Shown here: piece by piece, positions 17,145 through 37,386 of the stretch
Layout: every line of letters begins with the position of its first letter
How positions within the stretch are numbered: the first letter of the stretch is position 1
Assembly: GCF_014859695.1 (NCBI RefSeq)
Contig: NZ_JACUTS010000010.1
Coordinates: 1 to 42,885 of the forward strand
From: Sulfurimonas sp.
Lineage (GTDB): Bacteria > Campylobacterota > Campylobacteria > Campylobacterales > Sulfurimonadaceae
Length of the DNA stretch: 42,885 nt
Direction of reading: 5' to 3'
Made by a program: the position numbers and the translations under genes
The notes under the pieces: generated by a model
Databases searched by the model: none
Told to the model about the DNA's origin: nothing
What the model saw: the letters and a program-made list of their open reading frames with translations, nothing else

Positions 17145-18934
<1,790 letters not shown>

Positions 18935-19360: not shown

Positions 19361-19395
19361 AAAAGTTTTATAACTAAAAATTAAGTCAAATTTAC

Positions 19396-19401: not shown

Positions 19402-19428
19402 AAATTTAAAAATTATAGGCAAATTTAT

Positions 19429-22400
19429 ATGAGCGCACAACCATTTACCCACTTACATCTTCATACCGAATACTCACTTCTAGACGGTGCAAATAAACTT
19501 ACAAATTTAGTATCGCAGGTTAAAAAGCTTGGCATGACATCCGTTGCTATGACGGACCACGGCAATATGTTCGGCGCTATTGATTTTTACCAGCAGATGA
19601 GAGGTGCGGGGATAAAGCCCATCATCGGGATGGAGGGTTACATTCATAACGGTGAGACGCTTGATGACAAGAGCACAAAACAGCGTTTTCACATCTGTCT
19701 TTTTGCAAAAGATCAAAAGGGTTATGAAAACCTTATGTATCTCTCATCAAAAGCCTTTATAGACGGCTTTTACTACTTCCCGCGTATAAACAAACAAGAG
19801 CTTCGTGAACATAGTGAGGGGTTGGTCTGTACAAGTGCATGCCTTCAAGGCGAAGTAAACTGGCATCTAAATACGGCAAACGAGAAAAATTTAAAAAACG
19901 GTGCTTTAGGGTATGAGGGCGCAAAAGCTGTAGCGCTGGAGTATAAAGAGATTTTTGGAGATGATTTTTACCTTGAACTTATGCGCCACGGCATAGGCGA
20001 TCAGCTCTTCATCGACGAGCAGGTGCTCAGGCTCTCAAAAGAGCTCGATATAAAAGTGGTGGCTACAAATGACACTCACTACACATTCCCCGGCGATGCG
20101 CAGTACCATGAGGCGTTTATGTGTATCGGGATGAATAAACTCTACGATGACCCAAACCGAATGCGCCACTCTGTACATGAGTTTTACCTGAAATCTCCCC
20201 AGCAGATGGCAAGACTTTTTGCAGATATACCCGAGGCAATAACGCATACGCAAGAGATTGTGGATAAGTGTAACCTAGAGCTAAAACTAGGCGACCCGAT
20301 TCCTCCTAACTTTAAATTTACTAAAGAGTACTCGAAAAACGACGGACTGGAGATAGATTATGAAGATGACGCTCCTTTAGCCGAAGATGCCACAAAAGAT
20401 GAAAAACGAGCATGGAAGAGCGCGGCTGATAAAAATGATGGGGAGTATTTTATATATCGCTGTGAACTCGGACTTATAGAGCGACTAAAACATGTGCCGC
20501 AGGAGAAACATGAGGAGTATAGAGACAGGCTGAAATTTGAGATGAACGTAATCAACTCCATGAAGTTTCCTGGCTACATGCTAATCGTTTGGGATTTTGT
20601 TAAAGTTGCCAAAGAGATGGGGATCGCTGTGGGACCTGGACGGGGAAGTGCGGCTGGAAGTCTTGTTGCTTATTCGCTTAAGATTACCGACATTGACCCT
20701 ATGAAGTATGACCTTCTTTTTGAGAGATTTTTGAATCCTGAGCGTGTGAGTATGCCCGATATTGATATGGACTTTATGCAGGCTCGCCGCGGAGAAGTAA
20801 TTGATTATGTTGTTCAAAAGTACGGACGAAATCAGGTTGCGCAGATTATTACTTTCGGCTCACTTCTGGCAAAAGGGGTTATCCGCGATGTTGCGCGCGT
20901 TCTTGACATGCCGCTATCTCAAGCCGACAAAATGGCGAAACTTGTTCCCGATGAGCTTGGAATCACGCTCAACGGAAAGAGCAAAAATGGAGAGTTTATA
21001 GCGGGAGCTTTTCAAAAAGAGCCAAAGTTAAAAGAGCTTATAGATGGCGATGCAAATGCCGCAAGAGTTTGGGAGTTTGCAAAAAAACTTGAAGGCTTAA
21101 AGCGTAACTCTGGCATACATGCCGCTGGCGTGGTTATTTCAAATGAGGAGCTTTGGAAAAAAACACCTATCTATAAGCCCTCAGGCGAGGATGTTTTTGT
21201 CACACAATACTCTCTTAACTACCTTGAGGACGTTGACCTGATTAAGTTCGACTTCTTGGGTCTGAAAACACTTGATGTAATCGACAATGCGATAAAGCTT
21301 ATAAAATTCCGCTATAACAAAGAGGTCATCTGGCATGAGATAGATGAAAACGACCCGAAAGTTTACGACGTGATTCGCGGCGGAAATACGGTGGGAATGT
21401 TCCAGATAGAGAGTTCCGGTATGCAGGATTTGAACAAGCGTCTAAAACCTGACAGCTTTGAAGATCTTATTGCGGTTTTGGCGCTCTACCGTCCGGGACC
21501 GATGGAGTCTGGAATGCTTGAGAGTTTTATTGAGAGAAAGCATGGACGCGAGAAGATAGAGTACACTTTTGATAGTATGGAACCTATACTTAAAAACACT
21601 TACGGAGTCATCGTTTATCAAGAGCAGGTTATGCAGATAGTTCAAACAGTCGGCGGTTTTTCTCTAGGCTACTCAGACATTATCCGTCGTTCTATGGGTA
21701 AGAAAAAAGATATGTCCGTCTATAACGACGAGTTTGCAAGAGGTGCGCAAAAACAGGGTCTAGACTACGCGGAAGCTTCTAAACTCTTTGACCTAATCGA
21801 GAAATTTGCGGGATATGGTTTTAACAAATCGCACTCTGCGGCTTATGCAATGATAACCTTTCAAACCGCATGGCTAAAGACATATTATCCAAACGAGTTT
21901 ATGGCGGCACTTCTAACTTCCGATAAGGACAACACCGACAAAGTCGTGCGCTATATTGATGAGACAAAGAGAATGGGCATTGAGCTCTCTCCTCCTGACA
22001 TCTGTGATTCACAGCTGGAGTTTTCCGCTATCACAAAGGATGAAAGAGAGATTGTACTTTTTGGTCTTGGTGCCATCAAGGGGGTCGGAGAAGCGGCAGT
22101 TTTATCGATACTTGAAACTAGAAAAGAGAGCGGTAATTTTACATCGCTTCAAGATTTCGTAAACAAAATCGAGCCTTCAAAGGTCAACAAAAGAGTCGTA
22201 GAGTCTATTATAAAAGCGGGCGGTTTTGACAGGTTCGGCTTTTCAAGAAAGGCACTGCTTGAGCAGATTGAGAAGATTGTAGATACCGCAAAAGATGCTT
22301 CAATGGCAAGAAAAAATGCCATCGGAAGCCTATTTGGAGACGATAGTGAGATAACAAGTGTTGAGCTAAAACTTACAAATTCGCCCGAGTACGAGCTTAA

Positions 22401-23037
22401 AGAGATTTTAGAGTTTGAGAAGGAGACCTTGGGCTTTTACGTCTCAGGACATCCGCTTGATGAGTACAGAGAAAAGATAGATGAGCTTGAGTATACGCTC
22501 TCCTCTGAGGTTGAGGGGGTAAAAGATGGCTCATACGCTATTTTCATAGGAAAAGTCGAAGAGATAACCAAAAAAACATCCAAAAAAGGAAACCAGTTCG
22601 GCATAGTAAGCCTTATGGATTTTCACGGAAATATAGAGGTGATGCTATTTTCTGACAAGGTTGAACAACTCCAAGAAATGAACCTAAACGAGCCAATAGC
22701 CATAAAAGCAAAAATTACCCACACCGATATGTTTACAAGAATAGGCGTAAGTAAACTTATGACGCTAAAAGAGGCGAAAAAAGAGACTCAGAAGACGAAA
22801 AAAGAGGTACGTGAGATGCCGCAAGAGCCTATAAATCTAGCCATAAGACTAGACAGTGACATGAGAGTTCTGGAAGATTTATACACACTTGTACGTCAAA
22901 ACCCGGGAAACAGAGAGCTAAAAATTACCATAATCTCAAAACTTCAAAACGTCATAATAGACTCGGCTATAAGAGTGGACAGCAAACTAATAGCTGCGTT
23001 AGAGGGCAATGAGTTTGTTGATATTTTAAGCGTCTGA
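19429..23037 (+). CDS. dnaE: DNA polymerase III subunit alpha
   Basis: 1202 aa replicative polymerase. The N-terminal PHP domain begins with HLHTEYSLLDGA. The palm contains PDIDMDF with catalytic Asp444/Asp446 in the family pattern. The fingers region has KFDFLGLKTL and YRPGPMESGM, followed by the helix-hairpin-helix and the OB-fold (about 1010-1090, FIGKVEEITKK). There is no DnaQ-like exonuclease insert, so this is DnaE type 1 and proofreading needs a separate epsilon subunit. Length is normal and no interruption is seen. A strong terminator follows. Confidence 0.97.
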   Translation: MSAQPFTHLHLHTEYSLLDGANKLTNLVSQVKKLGMTSVAMTDHGNMFGAIDFYQQMRGAGIKPIIGMEGYIHNGETLDDKSTKQRFHICLFAKDQKGYENLMYLSSKAFIDGFYYFPRINKQELREHSEGLVCTSACLQGEVNWHLNTANEKNLKNGALGYEGAKAVALEYKEIFGDDFYLELMRHGIGDQLFIDEQVLRLSKELDIKVVATNDTHYTFPGDAQYHEAFMCIGMNKLYDDPNRMRHSVHEFYLKSPQQMARLFADIPEAITHTQEIVDKCNLELKLGDPIPPNFKFTKEYSKNDGLEIDYEDDAPLAEDATKDEKRAWKSAADKNDGEYFIYRCELGLIERLKHVPQEKHEEYRDRLKFEMNVINSMKFPGYMLIVWDFVKVAKEMGIAVGPGRGSAAGSLVAYSLKITDIDPMKYDLLFERFLNPERVSMPDIDMDFMQARRGEVIDYVVQKYGRNQVAQIITFGSLLAKGVIRDVARVLDMPLSQADKMAKLVPDELGITLNGKSKNGEFIAGAFQKEPKLKELIDGDANAARVWEFAKKLEGLKRNSGIHAAGVVISNEELWKKTPIYKPSGEDVFVTQYSLNYLEDVDLIKFDFLGLKTLDVIDNAIKLIKFRYNKEVIWHEIDENDPKVYDVIRGGNTVGMFQIESSGMQDLNKRLKPDSFEDLIAVLALYRPGPMESGMLESFIERKHGREKIEYTFDSMEPILKNTYGVIVYQEQVMQIVQTVGGFSLGYSDIIRRSMGKKKDMSVYNDEFARGAQKQGLDYAEASKLFDLIEKFAGYGFNKSHSAAYAMITFQTAWLKTYYPNEFMAALLTSDKDNTDKVVRYIDETKRMGIELSPPDICDSQLEFSAITKDEREIVLFGLGAIKGVGEAAVLSILETRKESGNFTSLQDFVNKIEPSKVNKRVVESIIKAGGFDRFGFSRKALLEQIEKIVDTAKDASMARKNAIGSLFGDDSEITSVELKLTNSPEYELKEILEFEKETLGFYVSGHPLDEYREKIDELEYTLSSEVEGVKDGSYAIFIGKVEEITKKTSKKGNQFGIVSLMDFHGNIEVMLFSDKVEQLQEMNLNEPIAIKAKITHTDMFTRIGVSKLMTLKEAKKETQKTKKEVREMPQEPINLAIRLDSDMRVLEDLYTLVRQNPGNRELKITIISKLQNVIIDSAIRVDSKLIAALEGNEFVDILSV

Positions 23038-23080
23038 GAGATTGAAATGCCGCTGAATCTTAGGAAATAAGAGGTGGAAG

Positions 23081-23117
23081 AACTCTGAGGGAAAGCCCTC
23101 GAGAGTTAATCTTTTTT
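23081..23117 (+). terminator. Intrinsic terminator after dnaE
   Basis: Stem AACTCTGAGGG / CCCTC-G-AGAGTT (11 pairs with one bulged G) with loop AAAG, then TAATCTTTTTT. It may also stop minus-strand transcription from the ice-binding gene, although the U-run on that side is weaker. Confidence 0.85.
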
Positions 23118-23134
23118 AGAGTGTGTAGTTTTGA

Positions 23135-24580
23135 TTAAGGTTGTGTAACAGCGTTAGCATCTAGCGTAACTGCTGTTTGCGATAGGAGTCTACCGTTAGT
23201 TTTTGCTCCGGTAGTTAAAGAAATCTTCTTTGCTACTAATGCTATACCTTTAAACTCTGCTGTTGTTCCAAGAGAGACACCTGCACCGCCTGCAACTTGC
23301 CAGAAGATATTTTTCGCCAATGCGCCGCCTGTAAGAGTTATCTTAACACCATTAGCCACAATAAGGTCTCCTGATATCTGGAAAATCCAAACATCAGTCG
23401 CACCACCGGAAATAAATACTTCACTATTTATTAAAACATTTGTTCCCCATTTGTATAGACCTGGAACTAGTGCCTTACCACCTAAGGCACCGCCATGTAG
23501 TTCTGTAAAATCAGGCAGCGTGCGTCCGGCTGCATCAGTATATGCAATTTCCATATCGCTGACCGCCGCCGTCATTTTAGCCGGTGTTGGAGTGGCCATA
23601 TCGGCTGCGTAGATTTTTCCTGTTACTATAGATGATGTAGCATATGTGCCATCAGGAGAAAGAGGCATAGGATCAAATCCGGTTATATAAGTTAGAGCGG
23701 CTGGGCTAACGCCTATATCGCCTGTAATCGCCGTAGTACCGGTGGTTGATATTCCAGTCTTGGAAAGGATTGCAAAACTTCCAGCTGTACCGAGATTAAC
23801 CGGTGCCAGGACTTTTTCTGTAGTATCTCCTGTTGTAAAACTCCATGTTTTAGCTGCTAAAGGATTGCCTGCTAAGTCTGTTACCCCGGCAGTGATATTT
23901 GCATCATAAGTACTGTTCGCATCAAGATCTACAGCAGGATCAAAAATCATTGTATTGCTTTCATAACTCATAACACCCGTAACTGCTGCACCGCCATTTT
24001 TGGTTAAAGTAAAAGTATCTACATTTACCGTAGAAGGGTCAAGCGGTTCACTAAAGAGAGCACTTACACTTCTGTTCATCGGCACGCCTATTTCATTATC
24101 ATCAGGGTCTGTTGATAGAACTGTTGGTGGAGTGTTATCTGAGTCTGTTCCTGTTGTAAAACTCCAGACATAGTCAGCTGCTAAAGCATTACCTTCTGAG
24201 TCTGTAACTCCGGTAGTGATTGTTGCATTATATTCAGTGCTTGCAGTAAGATCTGCATCAGGATTAAAAATCATCGCATTGTTAGCATAGCTCACATTAC
24301 CATCAACTGCGGTAGCACCACTTTTTAGCGTAAAAGTAGTTTTACTTACGGTAGTCTGATTAAGTTCTTTGTTAAAGAGAGCGGCAATGTTTGTGTTAAG
24401 GGTTACGTTATCGTCGCCATTAAGAGGAGCTGTAGATAGAACTACAGGGGTAGCAGAGACTTCCGTTGTTTCTGTTATTGTAGTACCGCCACCGCCGCCG
24501 CCACATCCAGCTATGAAAACTGTTAGCATGAAGAGTATAGATAGTAGTAGATGATTTGAGTACTGTTTTAATGTTTGCAT
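23135..24580 (-). CDS. Ig-like plus DUF3494 (ice-binding-like) lipoprotein
   Basis: 481 aa. Lipobox IAGC (Cys26) followed by six glycines; then two tandem Big_5-type immunoglobulin-like domains (about 42-142 and 148-252), each with the pattern of a P-x-D-N opening, LFNKELN or LFSEPLD and a W-SFTTG end; then a C-terminal DUF3494 domain (about 258-481). DUF3494 is a beta-solenoid found in ice-binding proteins and in adhesins from non-cold habitats. The two Ig repeats are clearly paralogous at DNA level. The likely place is the cell surface. AAAAAAGGA upstream supports the ATG at 24580. It is a single-gene unit between dnaE and a 331-bp gap, a plausible acquired gene. Confidence 0.85.
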   Translation of the reverse strand: MQTLKQYSNHLLLSILFMLTVFIAGCGGGGGGTTITETTEVSATPVVLSTAPLNGDDNVTLNTNIAALFNKELNQTTVSKTTFTLKSGATAVDGNVSYANNAMIFNPDADLTASTEYNATITTGVTDSEGNALAADYVWSFTTGTDSDNTPPTVLSTDPDDNEIGVPMNRSVSALFSEPLDPSTVNVDTFTLTKNGGAAVTGVMSYESNTMIFDPAVDLDANSTYDANITAGVTDLAGNPLAAKTWSFTTGDTTEKVLAPVNLGTAGSFAILSKTGISTTGTTAITGDIGVSPAALTYITGFDPMPLSPDGTYATSSIVTGKIYAADMATPTPAKMTAAVSDMEIAYTDAAGRTLPDFTELHGGALGGKALVPGLYKWGTNVLINSEVFISGGATDVWIFQISGDLIVANGVKITLTGGALAKNIFWQVAGGAGVSLGTTAEFKGIALVAKKISLTTGAKTNGRLLSQTAVTLDANAVTQP

Positions 24581-24911
24581 TTATTTATCCTTTTTTGTTT
24601 GTAAAAACAATTTAGTTATGATTGATATTAATGTATCGTCTCGCAAACAGATACAAATTCTATAAGCATGTAAAACTTACAGCTAGAAACTCGCATAACA
24701 GACTGAAAATGTTATGAGCCTAGCATTTCTTTAGGATCCCCAGAAGTCAACCCGCAACCCGAAGTCAACCACAGATACTACAGTATACCTGAATATAAAT
24801 TTTTTGAGCATTGAGCAAGAAAATTCAATGTAGCTGAGAAGATAGGTCATTTCAAACTTTATAATCTTGATATAATTGTGTCATCAGGTACAAATATTTA
24901 TAGGATTCAAT
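24581..24911. other. 331-bp divergent intergenic region
   Basis: No gene or RNA is recognisable. It holds the ice-binding gene's upstream region, a pair of direct repeats GAAGTCAACC (24743-24752 and 24761-24770, 18 bases apart), and two possible plus-strand -10 boxes (TATAAT at 24860-24865 and 24871-24876) before the next gene. The central 100 bases are less AT-rich than the flanks. Confidence 0.5.
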
Positions 24912-25226
24912 ATGAGACATAAAATCAAAGCAAAGGCGCAAGCAATAGCGCAAAATCCAAATACGAAAAAAGCGTTGCAGTCGATGAAACCACAGAAAAA
25001 TCTATGGGGCATAGGCGGGGTTATTCTCTTTCTTATCGTTCCTGAGATTGTTGCTTACATGTGGGGTGCGGAGATTACAGCCTATGCAACAAATGAGCTT
25101 TTAACGGTTGACAGTTTTTTACAAGAGAAATACTATGAGCTTTTGGTAGTGCTTTTTGAAGAGGGCATGAGCTATCTCAATCTTGCCATCGGCATAGCAC
25201 TTCTGGTTTGGTTGTTTTTGGGATGA
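24912..25226 (+). CDS. Small two-TM membrane protein, unrecognised
   Basis: 104 aa. A basic N-terminal segment (KIKAKAQAIAQNPNTKK) is followed by a hydrophobic helix (GGVILFLIVPEIVAYMWG), an acidic amphipathic middle and a second helix at the C-terminus (LNLAIGIALLVWLFLG). The ATG at 24912 has AGGA seven bases before it; an in-frame earlier ATG falls inside the promoter. The stop overlaps the DUF167 start by four bases (ATGA), so the two are co-translated. No function can be assigned. Confidence 0.75.
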   Translation: MRHKIKAKAQAIAQNPNTKKALQSMKPQKNLWGIGGVILFLIVPEIVAYMWGAEITAYATNELLTVDSFLQEKYYELLVVLFEEGMSYLNLAIGIALLVWLFLG

Positions 25227-25528
25227 GAGCAAGAGATTTGGCGCATCTGTTTTATGAGTGGGAGGGGGATGTTTTGGTTGTAAACATACTTGGAACTCCC
25301 GCTGCAAAGAGAGATGTTATAGGAAAAGTAAAAGGAAATCAGCTCAAAGTCAGCGTAAAAGCACAGCCACAAAAGGGAAGGGCAACGGACTACATGGTGG
25401 TTTTTTTGGCAAAAGAATTTGGCGTGAGCACGTCTGCTATCGAGGTAGTTTATGGAAGGGAGAGCATCCACAAACAGCTTCGCATAAAAGCGCCGAAAAA
25501 GTTGCCTGATAATATAGAATTTGAGTAG
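25223..25528 (+). CDS. DUF167 (YggU-like) family protein
   Basis: 101 aa with the family pattern AAKRDVIGKVKGNQLKVSV, then QPQKGRATDYMVVFLAKEFGV and a final basic strand. Function unknown; the fold is a small alpha/beta protein. The ATG at 25223 overlaps the previous stop. It lies directly upstream of the Wadjet-like operon but belongs to the housekeeping side of the junction. Confidence 0.88.
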   Translation: MRARDLAHLFYEWEGDVLVVNILGTPAAKRDVIGKVKGNQLKVSVKAQPQKGRATDYMVVFLAKEFGVSTSAIEVVYGRESIHKQLRIKAPKKLPDNIEFE

Positions 25529-25545
25529 AATAGAAGATATTTTTG

Positions 25546-25551
25546 TATAAT
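25546..25551 (+). promoter_or_regulatory. Candidate -10 box of the Wadjet-like operon
   Basis: TATAAT preceded by TTTTG, 65 bases before the jetD-like ATG; TTGAGT at 25521-25526 could be the -35 (19-base spacing). Between them and the gene, a 16-codon frame (ATG 25574 to TAA 25624) overlaps the jetD-like start by eight bases and might act as a coupling leader. Confidence 0.5.
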
Positions 25552-25616
25552 CAAAAAAAATAATTAAATTTCTATGAAAAACTGCAAGGACTCCATTTTA
25601 AAAGCGAGAAAAATAA

Positions 25617-26396
25617 ATGAATAAAAAACTTTTAAGACAAGCGCTTCTTTTTGAGGGCAACACTCCTGTATATAGTAGTGTAAAAGAGTTGTGCGCATTG
25701 GCTTCAAACAATCAAAGTGAAAATGAAATCTATTTTTTACAAGCAAAGCGAGGAGAAAGAGCAGTTGTTAAAGATCAAGAGCTTTTTTTTAGGTTTTTGT
25801 CCCAAACGCAAGATGTAAGTATAAATAATTTTGAAGATATATATAATATTTTAAATGCAACATGTAGAAGTGAAAATATTAGATTTAGCGGAGATTCTAA
25901 ATCAAATTTTGTTAGAGTCTTTGATAATGTAGTGGTTGTTAAAAAAAGAGCAGAGATAGCAAAACTTTATAAAAGTGATGATTTAAATGAGCTAGAGAAC
26001 ATAGATAATTTTTTGGCTATAGAAAATGGGGAAACTTTTTTAAATATTGAAAAATTTGCAGAGTATTTTGACGAGCAATATTTTGTATATTTGGCGGGGT
26101 ATGCAAATACGCTTACGAGAGCTTTCTTGAAAACAAAAGAGGTAACTTTTTTTGTAGATTTTGACATTGAGGGGATGAATATTTATGAGAGTTTTACATG
26201 TAGGGCTAAAAAATTGCATATTCCTAAAAACATACAGAGTTATTTTTCAGATAAAAAATATAATAATATCGCATTGTATAAAAAACAAAGAGCAAGAATG
26301 AAAAGTAGCTATTCACAAGATGTCATGCCGATAATAAAACTTATAAAAGAATACAATACGGTAGTCGAACAAGAGATAATATATGAAACACATTGA
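25617..26396 (+). CDS. Wadjet-like JetD (Toprim/TOPOVIA-type nuclease subunit), short form
   Basis: 259 aa. The C-terminal half matches the DUF2220/Toprim part of JetD: Glu136 in AIENGETF, the GYANTL turn, and Asp181-x-Asp183 in FFVDFDIEGMNIY, the acidic metal-binding set of Toprim nucleases. JetD is the subunit that cuts DNA once the SMC complex has recognised a small circular molecule. Known JetD proteins are, from memory, about 350-400 aa with a larger N-terminal arm domain (DUF3322); here only about 130 residues precede the Toprim part. It is the first of four overlapping genes (14-base overlap with the next). The ribosome binding site is weak. Assignment rests on motifs plus operon context. 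Confidence 0.75.
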   Translation: MNKKLLRQALLFEGNTPVYSSVKELCALASNNQSENEIYFLQAKRGERAVVKDQELFFRFLSQTQDVSINNFEDIYNILNATCRSENIRFSGDSKSNFVRVFDNVVVVKKRAEIAKLYKSDDLNELENIDNFLAIENGETFLNIEKFAEYFDEQYFVYLAGYANTLTRAFLKTKEVTFFVDFDIEGMNIYESFTCRAKKLHIPKNIQSYFSDKKYNNIALYKKQRARMKSSYSQDVMPIIKLIKEYNTVVEQEIIYETH

Positions 26397-27477
26397 ACTC
26401 TTAAAACTGCTTCATGAAAACAGAGAGCTTATTGACAGGGCTTATAGACAGGAGTTTTTGCAAAATGTAGAACCTGAGCTTGTCGATTCTACTCTTTTTG
26501 TAAAAATCAGCGACAGATACAAACTCAATAAAAACTATTTAAACTTTGTGGATTCTGTTTTACAAAGAATCGATTACAGTATCATTTTTGGGGATTATGA
26601 AAAAGAGTATAAAGAGCTTGTAAAAAATAAAAAACGCTTTCAAGAGAGAGCGGATGCGTTTTACAAATCTGCCATTATGAAACTTATAGATGATTTGTAC
26701 TTTAAGTTTTACAATCGTGACAGAGAGATACAGATACTTTTGCTGAGACTTGAAAATGACACCTCTTTAGATATAGATATTTTACTTGAAAATGCTGCTG
26801 ATATTTTAGAAAAAATAGACGAGCTTATAGGTGCAAATCAAAAAATCGGTGCTTTTTTTAGGAAAGATTTGAGAGGTCTTGATAGTGAGATAGATACTCT
26901 TTTGCAAAATATCAGCGTCAATATTTTATACTACATTCAAAATATCAACACTTACATAAAAGAGATAAATCAGTTTATCATCCAAACGAAAAAGCGACGA
27001 ATTCAAAATAAACAGATTATAAAACTCTCAAATATGATTTTAGATGAGGATGTTAATGCCTTGGATGAGTACCTGAGTCTGCACTATAAAAACCTCTACT
27101 TTAGTGTTGAGCGCAGTCAAAAAAACAGAATTCACAGTTTTGCCTCAGATGATGATATAGTGAAGATGAAAAAAGAGTTAAAGAGTCTGTTTTCAAATAT
27201 CGTGTTAGAAAAACCTGTAAAAACTGCTCCAATAAAAATGCAGGCAAAAGAGAAATTGGAGATAGTAGATATACAAAAAATTCTCAAAGATTTACAAGCA
27301 AAAAAAAGTGATGATATATTTTTATTTATTAAGTCTCATGGAGAGTTAGAGAGATTTACGCAGAGCGAATTAATAAATGAGGCATTTAAAGTTTACTTGC
27401 AGATTACAACAAATAAACAGGTTATGTTTGGTAAGTGTTTTAATGAGTTTGGTATAAAGGTGGCGCAATGGCAATAG
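26383..27477 (+). CDS. Wadjet-like JetA (MukF/kleisin-type subunit)
   Basis: 364 aa, all helical by appearance. The N-terminal part (about 1-90) could be the winged-helix region, the middle (about 95-210) contains long helices resembling the MukF dimer/linker helices, and the C-terminal part (about 285-364) looks like a second small winged-helix domain. No enzymatic motif is visible, as expected for a kleisin that bridges the SMC heads. It overlaps the neighbours on both sides (14 and 10 bases). It is shorter than the roughly 480 aa I recall for type I JetA, so identification depends mainly on position between JetD-like and JetB/JetC-like genes. Confidence 0.65.
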   Translation: MKHIELLKLLHENRELIDRAYRQEFLQNVEPELVDSTLFVKISDRYKLNKNYLNFVDSVLQRIDYSIIFGDYEKEYKELVKNKKRFQERADAFYKSAIMKLIDDLYFKFYNRDREIQILLLRLENDTSLDIDILLENAADILEKIDELIGANQKIGAFFRKDLRGLDSEIDTLLQNISVNILYYIQNINTYIKEINQFIIQTKKRRIQNKQIIKLSNMILDEDVNALDEYLSLHYKNLYFSVERSQKNRIHSFASDDDIVKMKKELKSLFSNIVLEKPVKTAPIKMQAKEKLEIVDIQKILKDLQAKKSDDIFLFIKSHGELERFTQSELINEAFKVYLQITTNKQVMFGKCFNEFGIKVAQWQ

Positions 27478-28004
27478 GTTTGGATGAGGTTTTTAAAGTT
27501 TTGAGCAAGGGTGTGATAATCTCTATAAATTCACAAAAGTATCTTGAGGTAGCAAAGTTTTTGATGATAGATGAAAATTTTGATGAGTTATATAAGATTT
27601 TAAATAAGTTAGGCTTTATCCTTAATGGTGAAAACGGCTATTTTTACATCTCAAAAAAAGAGACTATGCATGAGGGTGAGCTAAACAGCTTTTTAAACAA
27701 TCATAAAAATACCCTGATTGCTATCGCGATTTTAAAACAACTTTTTCCTTACTTGGAGAGAGGCAGTGTGCTTAAACAGACAGATTTTATAGTGCATTAT
27801 AAACAAAAAGAGGATCCCCGTTTGCAACAGAAATTTGAATATATTTTTAAGAGCAAAGATTTAAAAGATATAGTGGAAAAGTTTTTTGATTTGTTGGAGA
27901 AAAACTACATTTTAGAGAAAAAAGAGAGTGATTCTAAAGATGATTATCTCGTGCTTAGTTCCATAGAGTACTATACAAAAATTGTTCAAAGCGTGGCATC
28001 GTAA
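27468..28004 (+). CDS. Wadjet-like JetB (MukE/KITE-type subunit)
   Basis: 178 aa with two probable winged-helix segments (about 35-100 and 110-175), including KQLFPYLERGSVLKQTDFIV and a DUF4194-like middle. JetB/MukE proteins bind the kleisin and DNA. AAAGG before the ATG is a good ribosome binding site. The gene shares one base with the SMC gene (TAATG), so the two should be made in coupled amounts. The family match is weak by eye; size, order and overlap support it. Confidence 0.65.
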   Translation: MAIGLDEVFKVLSKGVIISINSQKYLEVAKFLMIDENFDELYKILNKLGFILNGENGYFYISKKETMHEGELNSFLNNHKNTLIAIAILKQLFPYLERGSVLKQTDFIVHYKQKEDPRLQQKFEYIFKSKDLKDIVEKFFDLLEKNYILEKKESDSKDDYLVLSSIEYYTKIVQSVAS

Positions 28005-31000
28005 TGATTAAAAAACTCATACTGATAAACTCTGCAAACTTTAATTTTTTAGACGTAAGTTTAGAAAAAGACCTTTTTTTCTTAGGTGATAACGGAAGCG
28101 GAAAAACAACCGTCATTAGAGCTATACATTATCTTTTCAGCGGCGATGTAAGAAACCTCGGCATTCCAAGTGACAAGGATGGTTTTAAAGAGTACTATTT
28201 TAAATTTTCCAACTCCTACATGATATATGTTTTTGAAGATTTTTTTATCTTCATGTATAAGAGCGGCGGTGAAATAGTCAAGATGTTTTCTAAGCAAAAA
28301 TTTGACCTTGCAAAAGTGATGAATGACAAGCGTGAGCTTTACGAATTAGATGAGATTAACAAGTATATCAGGTCGCCAAATCTTAAAAAAAGAGTGACAT
28401 CACTTGGCGAGTATAGAGAAATAATTTACGGCAACAATAAAAAATATTTAGATTTTAAATTTACCTTCATTAAAAATAACGAAATTTTTATAGGGCTTTT
28501 TAACGAGATATTTAATATTGACAAATCAATCATAGACTCAAGAAGTATAAAAAAAGCGATTCAAACTACACTTGATTATGAAAAAAAAGTTATAGACTTT
28601 GACCATGAAGAGTATCTTCAGGAGATATATAAGTTCAAATCTGAATATAGATTTTTTAAAGAGTTTGAGAAGCAGAAAAAAAATATTGATGAAGCTTTCG
28701 TACTCAAAGAGACTCTTCTCTCTTTGGAAGATGATATAAGTGAATTAAAAGAGTTTATAGTTTATAGAGTTGCACATGAGAGAGAAGAGTTAAGCACTTC
28801 GGCGGCACATGCACTTAAAATTGACATGGAGCTTGCCAAAACAAAAGAGTTGCATAAAAGAAGTTCGGCTATTTTAGACAGATGCCAGAAGAACTTTAGA
28901 GAACATCTTCATACTTTGGAGTTGGAAGTAAAATCTATCAAAGCTCTCAAAGAGAAGTTTTCACATGAGAGTGTTTTGGCAAACAGGGACAAAGCGGACA
29001 GACATGAAGAGGTACAAAGCAGACAGAGCGAACTCCAAGCGAGTTATATAAAACTCAAATCCGGTTTTGAGAGTGAACTTGACAACATTCAAAAAGAGAT
29101 AGCAGAACTTCTTTATAAAAGAGATAAAGAGCTTCCGCGAGAGCTACAGAGCAAAAAGTTTAACCAGACGCAACTGTTCAAAAATGAACTGGGCGAGAAG
29201 ATACAAAAAAAAGAGTTAGAGTTTTCTACCAGACAAAATGTTGCACTTTTGAGTGAGAGTGACATAAGAGAGGAGATAACGCAGTTTGAATCAGAGATAA
29301 AGAGTAAAAAATCAGTTTTAAACAGTGCCTCAGACGAGCATAAAGCTTTTGTAAAAAAACTCCAAGAGTCTCATGAAAAAGAGGAAGATAAAAATAGAGC
29401 AGAGATAAAGCTTAAGCGCGAATTGATAGATACTAAAAAAAGAGAGATTAAAAATTTTAAACTTGATTTAGAAGATTTACAGCGATTACATGTAAGAGAA
29501 GTAGATGAAAATAAAAGCAGTTATGAAAATGAACTTAGCAGGCACACAAAAGAGATACAAAAATATCACGGTATGATAGTCTCAAAGCCAAACTCATTTA
29601 AAGAGTATCTACATGAAGAGGTTGATGGCTGGGAAAGTGAACTTTATCCATTACTTGATGATGCCTTGCTTGATATGAGCATAGAAGAGTTAAAGCCGAA
29701 ATTACACCCTCAAAACAGGCTTTTTGCAATAGAGCTAGATAAAAAGAGTCTTAAGTCTATGCTCACAAAAGATGAAGCAGAGAGAAAAGTAGAGGAGTTA
29801 ACCCTTCAAAAAGAGAATCTACAGAGCAGCTATAGAGAGTCACAAGAGAGGCTTGAAGCAAAATATAAAAAGATTAGAGAATCCATAGAAGCCAAAGAGG
29901 AGTTTGCCGCTAAAGATATAGAACTTTTGGCGGGTGAAATAGAGGCACTAGAAGAGAATATCAGGCTTCTTGGCGAAGGGCTCACTTTAAAAATACAAGA
30001 GGCTCACGACACTTATAAGATAAAAGAGAAGCAGTTTAATTTAGATATGCAAAATTTGCTTCAAGAGATTAGATACAACATACAAGAGATAGAGAGAATT
30101 CATAAAGAGATTAGAGTTGATAGAAGCAGGGTAAATGATGCCTTGCAAGATTTAAAAGACGAGTATTTTGAGGATGTAAAACGAGAAACCCAAAAACTCG
30201 AAATATGGCTTCAAAATGAACAAAAGAGGATAGATACATTTGTAAAAATAAAAGAGGAACAAAAGTACAAGATAACCAAAGATGAGAGAGTAAAAGAGCT
30301 TGAAGCGAGTCTCTCAGAGATAGACAAAGAGTTATCTGAATGTTTACTCTCTAAAGAGTTTTTGGCAGAGTATGAGAAAAGAAAAGATGAAATAATCACA
30401 CTTGCACAAAAAGAGAGTGACTTAGAAAATATAAAACTCAAACATGAAGAGTTTAAAAAACGACTTGAGATAAAGATAGAGAACTATGAGTATAAAAAAG
30501 ATGAGCTGATTGAAGCAAAAAAAGCTCATGCAAACAAAGACAAGAAACTCAAAAAAGGGTTAAGTGATTTTGAACTTTTGGAAGATATATTTGAACTTAT
30601 AACTCCAAAAGAGAGCGGCGAATTTTTGTACATGTTAGTAGAGCGCTACAATGCACATTTACTTGAGTATAAAAGTAAAAAGGTTGACCTGAAAACCAAA
30701 CTTGACAAGATAAATGTGCTTAAAAATTCTCAAAATGAAATAGAGATTAATTTTAAATTTGAGGAGTACGACAGCGTTCTTTTTATCTCCTCTACACCAA
30801 ACACAATTGTGAAAATTGATGATGTTGTAGAGTTTAAAAACAAAAAGTTAGAGATGGTAAAACAAAACGGACACAAAAAATTTATAAACTTTGTAAACAA
30901 CTTGCTTCCTCAAAAAATGTCTATTTTTAACGATAGTGAAGACAGATTCTTCTCTCAAGTCGCAAAGATAAATAAGAACCTCTCGGAGATAGATTTTGGC

Positions 31001-31576
31001 GTGATTAAAAACATCAAAATTGATACACAGGCGGGTAATAAAAAAAGTATAGCCAAACTTTTAAATGAGTTACATGTCAATGTTTCAAACCTCGGTTCAC
31101 TGCTTAATGAGGGTTCGCTCTTTTACGATAAAGATGAAGTTTTGGTAGAGCTGGGTCGCTTGGAGATGAAGTTTAAAGAGATAAAACAAGAACTCAAAGG
31201 AAACTCGATTTCGCTTCAAGACACTATAGATTTGAGTTTGTCTTTTAATGAAAACGGCAAACAGATTTCGCAAGTTTCACAACTCAAAAATGAGAGCTCA
31301 ACGGGTGGAAGTATGCTGCTTAAAATCGCTATTGCGGTAGCTATTTTAAAACTGTTTATAAAAGATGATGAAACCCCATTTTTTCTAATTGTTGATGAGG
31401 TATCGCGTCTTCATAGTGATAATCAGGAAAAGCTAAGAGCGTTCGCAAACTTTAAAGGTTTCGGTATCATATTTGTAACACCGGAGCCAACATATTCAAA
31501 ACCGGAAGCGATAAAATACTACAGATTTAGAAAAAATGCAGATGATGAGTTTGAAGCGATTGAACTCAATGTGTGA
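28004..31576 (+). CDS. Wadjet-like JetC (MukB-type SMC ATPase)
   Basis: 1190 aa SMC protein. Walker A GDNGSGKT at 28-35; long coiled coil (about 215-520); a globular hinge-like segment around 527-600 (KPNSFKEYLHEEVDGWESEL); returning coiled coil (about 610-900); then the C-terminal head with an ABC signature variant SSTGGSMLLKIAIA (about 1098) and Walker B FFLIVDEVSRL (Asp1131, Glu1132). The STGG signature and small hinge place it with MukB/MksB/JetC, not with chromosomal SMC or SbcC (no CxxC zinc hook). It would extrude DNA loops and position JetD on closed circular plasmids. Last gene of the island; the M18 peptidase gene follows after 26 bases. Confidence 0.85.
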   Translation: MIKKLILINSANFNFLDVSLEKDLFFLGDNGSGKTTVIRAIHYLFSGDVRNLGIPSDKDGFKEYYFKFSNSYMIYVFEDFFIFMYKSGGEIVKMFSKQKFDLAKVMNDKRELYELDEINKYIRSPNLKKRVTSLGEYREIIYGNNKKYLDFKFTFIKNNEIFIGLFNEIFNIDKSIIDSRSIKKAIQTTLDYEKKVIDFDHEEYLQEIYKFKSEYRFFKEFEKQKKNIDEAFVLKETLLSLEDDISELKEFIVYRVAHEREELSTSAAHALKIDMELAKTKELHKRSSAILDRCQKNFREHLHTLELEVKSIKALKEKFSHESVLANRDKADRHEEVQSRQSELQASYIKLKSGFESELDNIQKEIAELLYKRDKELPRELQSKKFNQTQLFKNELGEKIQKKELEFSTRQNVALLSESDIREEITQFESEIKSKKSVLNSASDEHKAFVKKLQESHEKEEDKNRAEIKLKRELIDTKKREIKNFKLDLEDLQRLHVREVDENKSSYENELSRHTKEIQKYHGMIVSKPNSFKEYLHEEVDGWESELYPLLDDALLDMSIEELKPKLHPQNRLFAIELDKKSLKSMLTKDEAERKVEELTLQKENLQSSYRESQERLEAKYKKIRESIEAKEEFAAKDIELLAGEIEALEENIRLLGEGLTLKIQEAHDTYKIKEKQFNLDMQNLLQEIRYNIQEIERIHKEIRVDRSRVNDALQDLKDEYFEDVKRETQKLEIWLQNEQKRIDTFVKIKEEQKYKITKDERVKELEASLSEIDKELSECLLSKEFLAEYEKRKDEIITLAQKESDLENIKLKHEEFKKRLEIKIENYEYKKDELIEAKKAHANKDKKLKKGLSDFELLEDIFELITPKESGEFLYMLVERYNAHLLEYKSKKVDLKTKLDKINVLKNSQNEIEINFKFEEYDSVLFISSTPNTIVKIDDVVEFKNKKLEMVKQNGHKKFINFVNNLLPQKMSIFNDSEDRFFSQVAKINKNLSEIDFGVIKNIKIDTQAGNKKSIAKLLNELHVNVSNLGSLLNEGSLFYDKDEVLVELGRLEMKFKEIKQELKGNSISLQDTIDLSLSFNENGKQISQVSQLKNESSTGGSMLLKIAIAVAILKLFIKDDETPFFLIVDEVSRLHSDNQEKLRAFANFKGFGIIFVTPEPTYSKPEAIKYYRFRKNADDEFEAIELNV

Positions 31577-31602
31577 AAAATTAATACAAAGGTAATTAAA
31601 TA

Positions 31603-32862
31603 ATGATAAAACAAGATTTCAATGAAGGTTTGCTGGGTTTTTTGGATGCTTCGCCTACGCCGTTTCATGCAACTATAAATATGGCTGGAATGTTTGAAAA
31701 CGCCGGTTTTATAAAGCTAAACGAGATTGAGAAGTGGTCATTGGAGAAGGGGAAGAAGTACTACGTCACACGCAACGACTCATCTATCATAGCTTTTACA
31801 TATTCCGGCTCTAAAAACTACGTTATGGTCGGTGCGCATACTGACTCTCCCAACCTAAAACTAAAGCCAAATCCGGTTATAAAAGAGCACGGAGTCGTAA
31901 AGTTTGGAGTTGAGCCTTACGGCGGAGTTCTCTTAAACACTTGGTTTGACAGGGATCTCTCTTTGGCGGGGCGAGTGACCTATCTTGACTCAAATAACGT
32001 CATTAAAGATGCGCTTATTGATGCCAAAAAAGCTATCGCAATCATTCCATCTCTTGCCATCCACCTCGATAGAGAGGTAAACGAGAAAAAAAGCGTCAAT
32101 GCACAAACGGATATTACGCCGATACTCTCTACATCTGAGGAGTTTAGTTTTGAGCTCTTTTTAAAAGAGCAGCTAAAGTCAAGCGGTGTGGATGATGTAA
32201 AAGAGCTTTATGCAAACGAGCTTAGTTTTTACGACACGCAAAAAGCCTCTTTTGTGGGGTTACATGACGAGTTTATCGCAAGTGCGAGAGTTGACAACCT
32301 GCTTAGCTGTTATGTCGGGATGCTTTGTGTTTGCAGCGTTGGCGAAGATAAACCGATGCTCTTTATTGCAAGTGATCATGAAGAGGTTGGAAGCGAGAGT
32401 ACGTCGGGGGCAGGGGGCTCGTTTTTGGAGAGCACGCTCAAGCGTATGTTTGGAGATTTTGAAGAGTATACGCAGATGATGCGCTCGTCTATGCTTATAA
32501 GTGCGGACAATGCGCATGCAATCCATCCAAACTTCCCAAGCAAACATGACTCAAACCATGCACCGCTTATAAACAAAGGGAGTGTCGTCAAAGTCAATGC
32601 AAATCAGCGTTACGCCTCCAACTCAAAGACGATTTCAAGATTTATGAATGTTGCATCCTCCATCGGCGAGCCGATTCAGAACTTTGTAACAAGAAGCGAT
32701 ATGGGGTGCGGCTCAACCATCGGTCCTATAACAGCCTCAAGACTCGGCATTGAGACTCTCGACGTTGGGCTTCCGACATTTGCGATGCACTCTATCAGAG
32801 AGCTTTGCGGAAGCGATGATGCATATAGTCTTTATAAAATCGTTTTGGGATTTAACGACTGA
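31603..32862 (+). CDS. M18 family aminopeptidase
   Basis: 419 aa cytoplasmic dizinc aminopeptidase (ApeB/DAP type, preference for acidic N-termini). Metal and catalytic motifs are all visible: GAHTDSPNLKLKP, RVDNLLSCY, ASDHEEVGSES, SADNAHAIHPN and the final FAMHSIREL. Length is normal. AAAGG upstream of the ATG. Its stop overlaps the ATG of the next kinase gene by one base, so the two are co-translated despite unrelated functions. Confidence 0.93.
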   Translation: MIKQDFNEGLLGFLDASPTPFHATINMAGMFENAGFIKLNEIEKWSLEKGKKYYVTRNDSSIIAFTYSGSKNYVMVGAHTDSPNLKLKPNPVIKEHGVVKFGVEPYGGVLLNTWFDRDLSLAGRVTYLDSNNVIKDALIDAKKAIAIIPSLAIHLDREVNEKKSVNAQTDITPILSTSEEFSFELFLKEQLKSSGVDDVKELYANELSFYDTQKASFVGLHDEFIASARVDNLLSCYVGMLCVCSVGEDKPMLFIASDHEEVGSESTSGAGGSFLESTLKRMFGDFEEYTQMMRSSMLISADNAHAIHPNFPSKHDSNHAPLINKGSVVKVNANQRYASNSKTISRFMNVASSIGEPIQNFVTRSDMGCGSTIGPITASRLGIETLDVGLPTFAMHSIRELCGSDDAYSLYKIVLGFND

Positions 32863-33845
32863 TGTCAGGCATAACACCCGATGAGCTAAGCCTTCTTATA
32901 GAGCAGACCTATAAGGTAGAGAAGGAGTTTAACGAGCTAAAAGCCTCTTATGCGCATCTGCAAGATACCGTTGAGGAAGTTGTTGAGTTTTTGCCAAACG
33001 CCATCTGGATACTACAAAAAGACGGTAGCGTTTTTCTGCAAAACTCTCAGGCAAAATCACTTGGCGAACTCTTTGAACTTTTGGAGCTTAAAAATGATGA
33101 CTATGAGGTGCAGTTTAGCTCAAAATCCTACCTTATTAAAAGCTCTTCATACAAAGAGAAATTACTTCTTAGCGCGACCGATATAACCGAGCAGAAGAGA
33201 AAAGAGAATCTCGCAACCATGGGGCAGATGGCGGCACATCTCTCTCATGAGATAAGAAATCCCATAGGCTCCATCTCGCTTTTGAGCTCCACGCTAAAAA
33301 AGAGGGTGCTTCCGGAGAATGTGCCAATTGTCGAGGAGATTCAAAAGTCGGTATGCAGGATTGAGAGGATTGTAAAAGCAACGCTTATGTTTAGTAAAGG
33401 TGTGCATGCAAACAAAGCGCCATTTATGTGGAGTGAACTTCAAGATGCCCTAGATATGGCTGTTGGGTACTACGGTTATACAAAAGATATAACATTTGTA
33501 TTTCCGGAGCAGAAATTTATACTAAATGCCGACAAAGATCTTCTTGAGATGCTCTTTTCAAATTTTTTAACCAATGCCATCGATGCAATAGAGCTTGATG
33601 ATAATGAGTGCGGAAGCGTTGAGATTGTTTATGAATGTGATGATAAATTTCATAAATTTTACGTTTATGACAGCGGTGTGATGATTGAAAATACCAAAGA
33701 GCTTTTTGAGGCATTTAAGAGTACAAAAGTCAAAGGAAACGGCTTGGGGCTTGTTCTCTCAAGACAGATTGCCGAGGCTCACGGGGGAAGTGTTGAGCTG
33801 CTTGAGGGCAAAAGAAAGGGTTTTGAGATAAAACTTGCGCTATGA
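32862..33845 (+). CDS. flgS: Soluble sensor histidine kinase, FlgS-like
   Basis: 327 aa with no membrane helix. N-terminal coiled coil (about 8-45) and a small PAS-like domain (about 42-110) precede HisKA with His129 in LSHEIRNPIGS and HATPase_c with NFLTNAIDAIE, the degenerate DSGVMI G1 box and GNGLGLVLS. This layout and length match FlgS of Campylobacter and Helicobacter, which senses the flagellar export apparatus and phosphorylates FlgR to activate sigma-54 flagellar genes. No FlgR or flagellar gene is in the window, so the name is a family-level inference. Confidence 0.7.
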   Translation: MSGITPDELSLLIEQTYKVEKEFNELKASYAHLQDTVEEVVEFLPNAIWILQKDGSVFLQNSQAKSLGELFELLELKNDDYEVQFSSKSYLIKSSSYKEKLLLSATDITEQKRKENLATMGQMAAHLSHEIRNPIGSISLLSSTLKKRVLPENVPIVEEIQKSVCRIERIVKATLMFSKGVHANKAPFMWSELQDALDMAVGYYGYTKDITFVFPEQKFILNADKDLLEMLFSNFLTNAIDAIELDDNECGSVEIVYECDDKFHKFYVYDSGVMIENTKELFEAFKSTKVKGNGLGLVLSRQIAEAHGGSVELLEGKRKGFEIKLAL

Positions 33846-33898
33846 CAATTTTTTTTGAATTATAAGATGTTAGAATAAACGAAAAAAAAGGGGTAAAT

Positions 33899-34186
33899 GT
33901 GAAAAAAGAGTTGATCGAGGTTCCAAGAGCTACACTGGATTTTTATAAATATGAAGAGGATGGCTTGACATACTATGAGTACGATGCAACAGGTTGTCAG
34001 CCGCCTGAGCCTATGGTAAACACAATGGTTGGTCTCTCTCTTCTTAAGAGCAAAAATGATAGACTAGTCGGAATATTTTTTCACGAGCCGTTTCCTCTAT
34101 ATGACAGGATTCCTCTCACAATATCACACGAAGCTGCGCAGCTTGAGAGCGGTGACTTTAGAATAACTTTTAAACTCGAAGAATAA
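33899..34186 (+). CDS. Conserved small protein, unrecognised
   Basis: 95 aa soluble acidic protein, starting at GTG with AAAAGGGG upstream. It has an aromatic-rich start (TLDFYKYEEDGLTYYEYDA), a CQPPEPMVNTM motif and a beta-rich remainder. Codon use is like its neighbours. No family is recognised; a 53-base gap separates it from the kinase, so it may or may not be co-transcribed. Confidence 0.75.
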   Translation: MKKELIEVPRATLDFYKYEEDGLTYYEYDATGCQPPEPMVNTMVGLSLLKSKNDRLVGIFFHEPFPLYDRIPLTISHEAAQLESGDFRITFKLEE

Positions 34187-34192
34187 GCCAAT

Positions 34193-34245
34193 TAGTTAAA
34201 CTTTGTTATCTAAATTTAACTAGAATATCCTTTTTAAATAAGGAT
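34193..34245 (+). promoter_or_regulatory. Control region of ccsBA with two inverted repeats
   Basis: TAGTTAAA (34193-34200) and TTTAACTA (34215-34222) form an 8-bp perfect inverted repeat just before a -10-like TAGAAT (34221-34226). Directly after it, TATCCTT and AAGGATA (34225-34231 and 34239-34245) could pair across a seven-base loop and cover the AAGGA ribosome binding site. The former could be an operator or a weak terminator of the previous gene. Confidence 0.4.
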
Positions 34246-34249
34246 ACAT

Positions 34250-37375: not shown

Positions 37376-37386
37376 GAGACGTTGCT

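What the first reader, a model, noticed from the sequence alone, without database searches (positions are those of the whole stretch)
25617..31576. Compact, JetD-first Wadjet-like SMC defence operon
Four genes overlapping by 14, 10 and 1 bases encode a Toprim subunit (Glu136, Asp181, Asp183), two small helical proteins of MukF/MukE size and position, and a MukB-type SMC with a 28-35 Walker A. This is the composition of Wadjet, which destroys plasmids. As I recall, the described type I order is jetA-jetB-jetC-jetD; here the nuclease gene is first. JetD is only 259 aa with a much reduced N-terminal arm, and JetA (364) and JetB (178) are also small. It may be a separate minimal subtype. Island borders are sharp: DUF167 gene on one side, M18 peptidase gene 26 bases after the other.
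Basis: partly seen in the sequence, partly recalled or inferred. Interest (0 to 1): 0.8.

Follow-up and report, generated by a model that had tools for sequence, protein, structure and literature searches.

The report
Divergent Wadjet-like plasmid defence operon
A Sulfurimonas genome carries a four-gene machine, a DNA-pulling SMC complex plus a DNA-cutting enzyme, that most likely destroys incoming plasmids; it belongs to a little-catalogued branch of the known Wadjet/MksBEFG defences in which the cutting-enzyme gene has moved to the front.

Summary
In detail: four co-directional genes (25617-31576), overlapping by 14, 10 and 1 bases, encode a Toprim nuclease (D, 259 aa), a helical kleisin-like protein (A), an MksE-type KITE protein (B) and a DUF3584/MukB-type SMC ATPase (C). 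D's predicted fold is nearest to MksG of C. glutamicum (Z 11.9); JetD of P. aeruginosa scores 8.8. E136, D181 and D183 are invariant in 23 aligned D proteins. The operon is accessory: strong D matches in 8 of 60 genomes of the genus, and two species show the site without it. MksBEFG/Wadjet-type anti-plasmid defence is the best reading. It fits no catalogued type: among PADLOC Jet models only JetD1 matches. It belongs to a wider branch (MksE-type B, DUF7281-type D) with three gene orders: A-B-C-D, C-B-A-D (eight large Pseudomonadota plasmids read here) and D-A-B-C. JetD-first looks like a derived Campylobacterota order; the short JetD is shared by the whole branch. Unexpected: in 4 of 16 related operons a restriction-type module is nested inside. 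New variant of a known kind; no activity has been shown.

The parts
25617..26396 (+). gene D: JetD/MksG-type Toprim nuclease, 259 aa, with a short N-terminal region of about 100 residues
   Evidence: Pfam DUF7281 1.1e-8 (above cut-off), JetD_C 1.4e-4 (21.7 bits, cut-off 22); PADLOC JetD1 1.9e-7; fold matches MksG 8b7f Z 11.9, topoisomerase VI A, JetD 7til Z 8.8 over residues 100-259; K95, E136, N137, D181, D183, Q252, E253 invariant in 23 aligned D sequences, window included
26383..27477 (+). gene A: kleisin-like subunit (JetA/MksF position), 364 aa, mostly helical
   Evidence: no Pfam match at E<=1; profile match to A proteins of the A-B-C-D and plasmid systems, 307 and 296 columns, probability 44% and 64%, but 4% to Bacteroidota A; ten cross-subunit controls at most 0.6%; structure model weak, pLDDT 54.8
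27468..28004 (+). gene B: KITE subunit (JetB/MksE), 178 aa
   Evidence: Pfam MksE 5.9e-14, above cut-off; profile match to B proteins of the other sets, probability 83-98%
28004..31576 (+). gene C: SMC-like ATPase (JetC/MksB), 1190 aa, Walker A 28-35, signature 1099-1102, Walker B 1126-1133
   Evidence: Pfam DUF3584 2.4e-19, above cut-off; motifs; G28, G33, K34, T35, D1131, E1132 invariant in 19 aligned C sequences; profile match over about 1100 columns to C of the other sets
25573..31598 (+). inserted segment (about 6.03 kb) relative to two species of the genus whose DUF167 and M18 genes are adjacent; ends are those of the blastn alignments
   Evidence: homology ends at 25571/25572 and resumes at 31599/31601; GC 0.30-0.36 in the 1-kb steps of 25000-30999 against 0.37-0.45 in the steps of 18000-24999 and 32000-37999
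25538..25551 (+). TATTTTTGTATAAT stretch left of the break, also present in the two operon-less relatives; possibly a resident promoter that the operon uses
   Evidence: the promoter role is inference, and the consensus scan did not list this site (31 sites found, 24.8 +- 5.0 in shuffles)
19429..23037 (+). flank: dnaE (DNA polymerase III alpha, name recalled from the sequence), left limit of the variable stretch in the genus
   Evidence: dnaE and M18 lie 6-38 bp apart in 16 of 30 genomes with both on one contig
31603..32862 (+). flank: M18 aminopeptidase, right limit of the variable stretch
   Evidence: Pfam Peptidase_M18 1.1e-125

Best explanation
An accessory SMC-plus-nuclease operon of the MksBEFG/Wadjet kind that protects against circular foreign DNA, above all smaller plasmids. 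C dimers bound by the kleisin A and the KITE protein B form a loop-extruding motor. On a small circle the motor runs out of DNA, stalls and presents a bent segment to the dimeric Toprim nuclease D, which cuts both strands; the chromosome is too large to be fully extruded. Shown here: the four-part composition, intact ATPase and Toprim residues, JetD/MksG-like predicted fold of D, recurrence of the four genes together, accessory distribution at a site that holds other defence systems in some related species. Inferred from characterised relatives: complex formation, loop extrusion, size-dependent cleavage, plasmid as the target. The lineage is a branch (MksE-type KITE, DUF7281-type nuclease) outside the catalogued Wadjet types I-III; JetD-first is most simply a derived order within it.
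For: Families and motifs; D fold; the four subunits recur together; subunit-by-subunit profile similarity to A-B-C-D and C-B-A-D systems with ten negative controls; sparse distribution: strong D match in 8 of 60 genomes of the genus, and in 9 of 397 genomes of the phylum, plus 2 intermediate and 4 weak; the site without the operon in two relatives; the dnaE-M18 interval of others holds type I restriction plus a PtuA-like gene, a type IIG enzyme, or PtuA-like genes. Published function of MksBEFG/Wadjet: passages of PMC10123090, PMC10586767, PMC12287153.
Against: No activity data. A has no family match and a poor model, so 'kleisin' rests on position, helical content and weak profile similarity. 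The D model comes from five sequences; its five versions range from pLDDT 50.6 to 78.2, and Foldseek TM-scores are low (0.28-0.44 for the top three). No profile of A, B or C found a solved JetA, JetB, JetC or MukB chain, and the widest D profile found MksG only at E 0.95. The IFDR motif of type I JetB is in 0 of 30 B sequences (motif from PMC10586767). ScpA was found in 0 of 21 genomes, so a chromosomal role is possible. Some occupied dnaE-M18 intervals hold no defence gene.
Confidence: 0.82

Rival explanations
1. A chromosome-organising MksBEF condensin that happens to carry a Toprim subunit, used for segregation or decatenation in a bacterium without SMC-ScpAB.
For: ScpA found in 0 of 21 genomes searched, while 9 of 14 control genomes rang; A-B-C relatives without a neighbouring D exist in Bacteroidota; MksBEF of P. 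aeruginosa acts on the chromosome (PMC10586767 passages).
Against: No strong D match in 52 of 60 genomes of the genus and cleanly missing from the same site in two relatives; D keeps its metal-site residues; the interval holds defence genes in some relatives.
Confidence: 0.1
2. A Wadjet-like machine whose main target is phage or other circularising mobile DNA rather than plasmids.
For: Neighbouring and nested genes are of restriction type; one paper mentions a probable action of Wadjet I on ssDNA phage (PMC11680222 passages); I found no paper on this branch.
Against: The characterised systems in the passages I read act on plasmids; C-B-A-D relatives ride on large plasmids, as expected if smaller plasmids are the target.
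Confidence: 0.15
3. A decayed or non-functional remnant.
For: Some relatives are broken: D with an in-frame stop (G293), a lone D whose C-terminal end does not align (L081), a truncated C (L078); the L022 copy is split over several frames.
Against: In the window all four frames are full length with the catalytic motifs intact.
Confidence: 0.03

Closest known systems
MksBEFG of Corynebacterium glutamicum (Wadjet type I)
   Same: SMC + kleisin + KITE + Toprim nuclease in one operon; D's predicted fold is nearest to MksG (8b7f, Z 11.9, rmsd 3.0 over 145 residues)
   Different: published order is mksFEBG, nuclease last (PMC10123090 passages); here nuclease first; D has about 100 residues before the Toprim part where MksG has about 217 (its residues 218-377 align); no match of A, B or C to PADLOC JetA, JetB or JetC models
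Wadjet types II and III
   Same: four-part SMC plus Toprim composition
   Different: no PADLOC type II or III model matches any of the four proteins at E<=1; the D of a more distant relative matches JetD3 at 6e-6 (L053)
C-B-A-D systems on large Pseudomonadota plasmids (Aromatoleum, Azospira, Pseudomonas, Polaromonas, Acinetobacter, Vibrio, Rhodoferax)
   Same: the four subunits match by profile comparison; MksE-type B and DUF7281-type D in the one scanned (L110)
   Different: gene order C-B-A-D; on plasmids of 107-910 kb; annotated as ATP-binding and hypothetical proteins, one D as DUF2399
MukBEF of E. coli K-12
   Same: SMC, KITE and kleisin roles; kleisin-KITE-SMC gene order
   Different: no nuclease gene; profile probability only 24% (C), 0.4% (B), 0.2% (A)

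Membership tests
MksBEFG/Wadjet in the broad sense | operon of SMC ATPase, KITE, kleisin and Toprim nuclease | tested here: met
   A by position and weak profile similarity only
MksBEFG/Wadjet in the broad sense | JetD/MksG-type Toprim fold with conserved E and DxD | tested here: met
MksBEFG/Wadjet in the broad sense | intact SMC ATPase motifs | tested here: met
MksBEFG/Wadjet in the broad sense | cleaves circular plasmid DNA, reduces transformation | not testable with these tools
   needs an experiment
Wadjet type I | SMC subunit of the DUF3584 family (PADLOC describes JetC1 so) | tested here: met
   Pfam DUF3584 2.4e-19
Wadjet type I | matches to the JetA1, JetB1 and JetC1 models | tested here: not met
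   none at E<=1; distant relatives match JetB1 and JetC1 weakly
Wadjet type I | JetD with a long N-terminal domain | tested here: not met
   C-terminal part matches JetD1 and, just under cut-off, JetD_C; no N-terminal family match; 259 aa against JetD1 model lengths of 382-409
Wadjet type I | IFDR motif at the JetB N-terminus (PMC10586767) | tested here: not met
   0 of 30 B sequences hold IFDR; VFKVLSKG lies near the N-terminus in the window's B and IFDILSKG in L083's; no type I JetB was at hand as a positive control
Wadjet types II and III | matches to their Jet models | tested here: not met
   none at E<=1; the JetA3 model rang in 0 of 200 genomes but also in no control
MukBEF | recognisable MukB, MukE, MukF homology | tested here: not met
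   hhalign against E. coli K-12 MukBEF; no MukB chain among the matches of the C profile at E<=0.01

The most novel reading that the evidence does not exclude
The SMC core of this branch is a shared platform for several DNA-cutting effectors. Restriction-type modules have been plugged into the operon repeatedly: a helicase + type IIG-like methylase between D and A in two species (in one with start-stop overlaps on both sides), an McrBC-like pair between C and D in one, a YhcG-type nuclease between A and B in one. Extrusion-sensing and sequence- or modification-sensing restriction would then act together. In Sulfurimonas, where I found no ScpA, this may be the cell's only SMC loop extruder of known type.
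Probability: 0.12. Interest if true: 0.78.

Novelty: new variant of a known kind. Interest (0 to 1): 0.5.

Why it matters
It points to a Wadjet branch, spread over at least Campylobacterota and Pseudomonadota plasmids, that the defence-finding models used here largely miss. Its JetD is about two thirds of the usual length: a smaller nuclease in which to ask what the JetD N-terminal arm is for. Three gene orders in one branch let the role of order be tested, and its presence on large plasmids bears on plasmid competition. The nested restriction modules suggest a testable link between topology-sensing and sequence-sensing defence.

Tried and rejected
Sequence search of solved structures with D, A, B and C found no Jet or Muk chain at useful E-values; the widest D profile reached topoisomerase VI A at 0.0048 and MksG at 0.95. 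Matches of the C profile there were mostly unrelated coiled coils. Other weak PADLOC matches in the window were set aside as partial: C to LmuB (1.4e-4), A to PDC-M54B (0.005), B to Cmr5 (0.0086). Viral contigs: no relative of D among 73 candidate stretches; for C five short head-domain matches, not followed; no C match in 50,697 phage records; no D match in 72,556 plasmid records. A JetC1 search rang in 57 of 200 genomes and 7 of 14 controls; the rows seen are short head or coiled-coil stretches; the best (G206, 7.4e-8, in a 1131-aa frame) could be a real JetC and was not followed. A JetA3 search was uninformative, as no control rang. A tree with canonical type I-III JetC was not possible, because I reached no named reference sequences; the tree holds this branch with MukB as outgroup. 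Doron 2018 and Deep 2022 are not held, so I could not check the gene order of the original types II and III and do not claim that JetD-first is unprecedented. Text searches: DUF7281, 0 papers; jetDABC or jetD-jetA, 0 papers; Wadjet with Campylobacter and MksB, 0 papers; Wadjet with Sulfurimonas, 1 paper, passages read, not about this; Wadjet with nested, restriction-modification and operon, 3 papers, listing seen only. Passages of PMC9252829, PMC10740426, PMC10512200 and PMC12647877 were seen for type and architecture background. DUF167 as a conserved island border was rejected. The fold of D's first 100 residues stays untested: the fold match covers residues 100-259.
Full report
WHAT IS THERE. 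The window is contig 105 of a 2.37 Mb, 186-contig assembly. I take the genus to be Sulfurimonas because contigs of its congeners G018 and G029 have the lengths and sequence of records titled Sulfurimonas. Four + strand ORFs, D (25617-26396, 259 aa), A (26383-27477, 364 aa), B (27468-28004, 178 aa) and C (28004-31576, 1190 aa), overlap by 14, 10 and 1 bases. M18 aminopeptidase follows after 26 bases. The finding's residues and motifs are correct: E136, D181, D183 in D and GDNGSGKT at 28-35 in C; C also has STGG at 1099 and a Walker B FFLIVDEV at 1126-1133.

FAMILIES. D matches Pfam DUF7281 (1.1e-8, above cut-off) and JetD_C (1.4e-4, 21.7 bits against a cut-off of 22); B matches MksE (5.9e-14); C matches DUF3584 (2.4e-19), the family that PADLOC names for JetC1; A matches nothing at E<=1. 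Among the PADLOC Jet models only JetD1 matches, to D (1.9e-7, residues 119-257); C has a partial match to LmuB of Lamassu (1.4e-4). NCBIfam gives nothing of use.

FOLD OF D. A model from five sequences has mean pLDDT 78.2 and pTM 0.56; the other four versions have 69.2, 66.7, 52.2 and 50.6. Among the chains that Foldseek ranks highest, VIA-align puts MksG of C. glutamicum first (8b7f, Z 11.9, 145 residues, rmsd 3.0), then Spo11 and topoisomerase VI A (Z 8.8-10.1) and JetD of P. aeruginosa (7til, Z 8.8); other Toprim proteins follow at Z 5.7 and below. Foldseek itself has topoisomerase VI A at 1.1e-4 and MksG third at 5.2e-3, with low TM-scores. The match covers residues 100-259 and MksG residues 218-377, so D has about 100 residues where MksG has about 217 before the Toprim part. 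In 23 D sequences (chosen from the 28 in the groups; five close ones left out) K95, E136, N137, D181, D183, Q252 and E253 are invariant and R84 nearly so. The model of A is poor (pLDDT 54.8), mostly helical.

RELATIVES AND GENE ORDER. Reading the loci around matches, D-A-B-C without an internal insert occurs in the window and in ten other genomes (L041, L048, L049=L018, L020, L024, L051, L052, L078, L079, L080). Of these ten, C is truncated to 195 aa in L078, D has an in-frame stop in L079, and C runs off the contig in L051 and L052. Three more have D first with an insert (L047=L016=L086; L050=L087; L042=L019). So 14 D-first operons were seen, ten of them (the window included) with all four genes full length. 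L021 has A-B-C without D; L022 is split over several frames; L077 ends after D; L081 has a lone D with an unalignable end; L015 and L017 begin inside the operon. In genus g16 the order is A-B-C-D (L083; A 33-34%, B 46%, C 33-36%, D 30-31% identical to the window) or C-insert-D (L082; A and B lie outside the stretch). More distant Campylobacterota relatives are A-B-C-D (L053, L057, L084, L085). In Sulfurimonas such a D stands directly beside M18 in L055 and L061 and one gene away in L057. Two full-length C proteins (L023, L025) have no A, B or D partner in the stretch by hmmsearch.

Searching plasmids with C of such relatives led to C-B-A-D systems; eight were read (L110, L113-L119), on records of 107-910 kb. 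Two more have an interrupted or split C (L108, L109), and L120 holds only a C fragment. In the one scanned (L110) B is MksE (3.2e-8) and D is DUF7281 (8.2e-19). Bacteroidota records carry A-B-C with no D in the stretch (L106, L112; in L107 C runs off the record).

Profile comparison of the Campylobacterota set (D-first operons plus L082, L083 and, for C, L023 and L025) with the A-B-C-D and C-B-A-D sets gives: C 100% over about 1100 columns, B 98% and 83%, D 99% and 97%, A 44% and 64% over about 300 columns. A matches Bacteroidota A at only 4%, although the A-B-C-D set matches it at 99%. Ten cross-subunit control pairs gave at most 0.6%. E. coli K-12 MukBEF gave 24% (C), 0.4% (B) and 0.2% (A) against this set. 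Lengths are small throughout: A 349-419, B 170-224, D 246-301, against JetD1 model lengths of 382-409. In a FastTree of 29 C proteins plus MukB, a clade with support 1.0 holds all 11 D-first operons that were included, with A-B-C-D L083 as its first branch (support of that split 0.83); D-first is therefore most simply a derived order. Several other nodes are weak (0.43-0.73).

ACCESSORY STATUS AND SITE. D matches strongly (E<1e-60) in 8 of 60 genomes of the genus and 1 of 39 others (13 of 99 have any match at 0.001). In an even draw of the phylum 15 of 397 match at 0.001: 9 at E<1e-70, 2 near 1e-38, 4 between 6e-13 and 1e-4. Of 39 genomes of the genus have dnaE and M18 on one contig (9 dropped: on separate contigs or one gene not found). 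In 16 of 30 they are 6-38 bp apart, in 14 of 30 they are 530-14,943 bp apart. The 14 occupied intervals were all read for ORFs, but family scans covered only chosen proteins. Six of the 14 hold likely defence genes: this operon (G000, G001, G029), a type I restriction set with a PtuA-like gene (G016, L038), a type IIG enzyme with a methylase (G021, L036), PtuA-like genes (G005, L034). Others hold GGDEF-EAL proteins (L044, L045, L046; L038 has one too) or a PAS-HD protein (L039). It is a variable site with a good share of defence genes, not a pure defence island. Two relatives (L034, L035) have DUF167 and M18 adjacent; homology with the window stops at 25571/25572 and restarts at 31599/31601, so the difference is about 6.03 kb: the operon plus 44 bp before and 22 bp after it. 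GC is 0.30-0.36 in the 1-kb steps of 25000-30999 and 0.37-0.45 in those of 18000-24999 and 32000-37999. A TATTTTTGTATAAT stretch left of the break is kept in both relatives; that the operon uses it as a promoter is inference.

HOW IT MOST LIKELY WORKS. Characterised MksBEFG/Wadjet systems extrude circular DNA with the SMC motor and cut it with JetD/MksG when extrusion is complete, which spares large chromosomes (passages of PMC10586767, PMC12287153, PMC13040014, PMC10123090). The same parts with intact catalytic residues are present here, so the same mechanism is the best inference. Steps shown: composition, motifs, predicted D fold, recurrence together, accessory site. Steps inferred: assembly, extrusion, cleavage, target. 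Points against or open: A is identified only weakly; the JetB IFDR contact motif of type I is absent in 30 of 30 B sequences; ScpA was found in 0 of 21 genomes (13 of the genus, 8 others of the order), while 9 of 14 control genomes rang, so a chromosomal role cannot be excluded.

NESTED MODULES. Beyond the finding: in G026 two large genes stand between D and A, a PLD + SNF2 helicase (H, 1037 aa) and a type IIG-like methylase (M, 1291 aa). D|H and M|A share an ATGA overlap and H|M abut, just where its relative L024 (D 70%, A 82%, B 88%, C 75% identical) has a D|A ATGA overlap. G056 has the same pair with two small ORFs before it (H 42%, M 43% identical to G026; D, A, B, C 51-70%). H rang in 17 of 298 genomes at 1e-60; in 7 of these 17 I read the surroundings, and in all 7 a relative of M lies beside H with no Jet gene in the stretch, so the pair is a system of its own that has nested here. 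L082 has an AAA_5 protein and an McrBC-family protein between C and D (165 bp after C, overlapping D); L042 has a YhcG-type PD-(D/E)XK nuclease between A and B, with gaps of over 300 bp on both sides. That is 4 of 16 operons (14 D-first plus 2 of g16; L021, L022, L077 and L081 not counted).

NOVELTY. The kind is known; the branch is largely missed by the PADLOC models used, and my text searches found no report of it. The original type II and III descriptions could not be read, so gene order alone is not claimed as new.

Noticed in passing
L050:1071-8830 (minus), L087; L047:260-9309 (minus), L016: A PLD/SNF2 helicase and a type IIG-like methylase are nested between genes D and A of the operon in two species, in one with ATGA overlaps at both ends.
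   Followed up: partly
L082:10688-17001 (minus): An AAA_5 (McrB-like) and an McrBC-family gene lie between C and D of a g16 relative.
   Followed up: partly
L110, L113-L119: Eight large Pseudomonadota plasmids carry C-B-A-D Wadjet-like systems, annotated mostly as ATP-binding and hypothetical proteins.
   Followed up: partly
window 23037-31603 and the same interval in relatives: The dnaE-M18 interval is 6-38 bp in 16 of 30 genomes of the genus and filled with varied genes in 14, of which 6 hold likely defence genes.
   Followed up: yes
L054:3-143 (own genome, contig 22) and L036:8036-8167: Fragments of the 3' end of dnaE stand next to type IIG restriction genes, once on another contig of the same assembly and once inside a relative's island, hinting at strain mixture or repeated insertion at the dnaE end.
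   Followed up: partly
L023:8977-12522, L025:8948-12484: Full-length C proteins that branch inside the Campylobacterota clade stand without A, B or D partners in the stretch read.
   Followed up: partly
window 23135-24580 (minus): An ice-binding-like protein with bacterial Ig-like domains is encoded between dnaE and the DUF167 gene.
   Followed up: no
G000-G012 and G060-G067: ScpA was found in 0 of 21 genomes, suggesting that they lack SMC-ScpAB.
   Followed up: partly
L094 (G206:C57:7379-7630): Best JetC1 model match in the phylum draw, in a 1131-aa frame; possibly a more canonical JetC in Campylobacterota.
   Followed up: no
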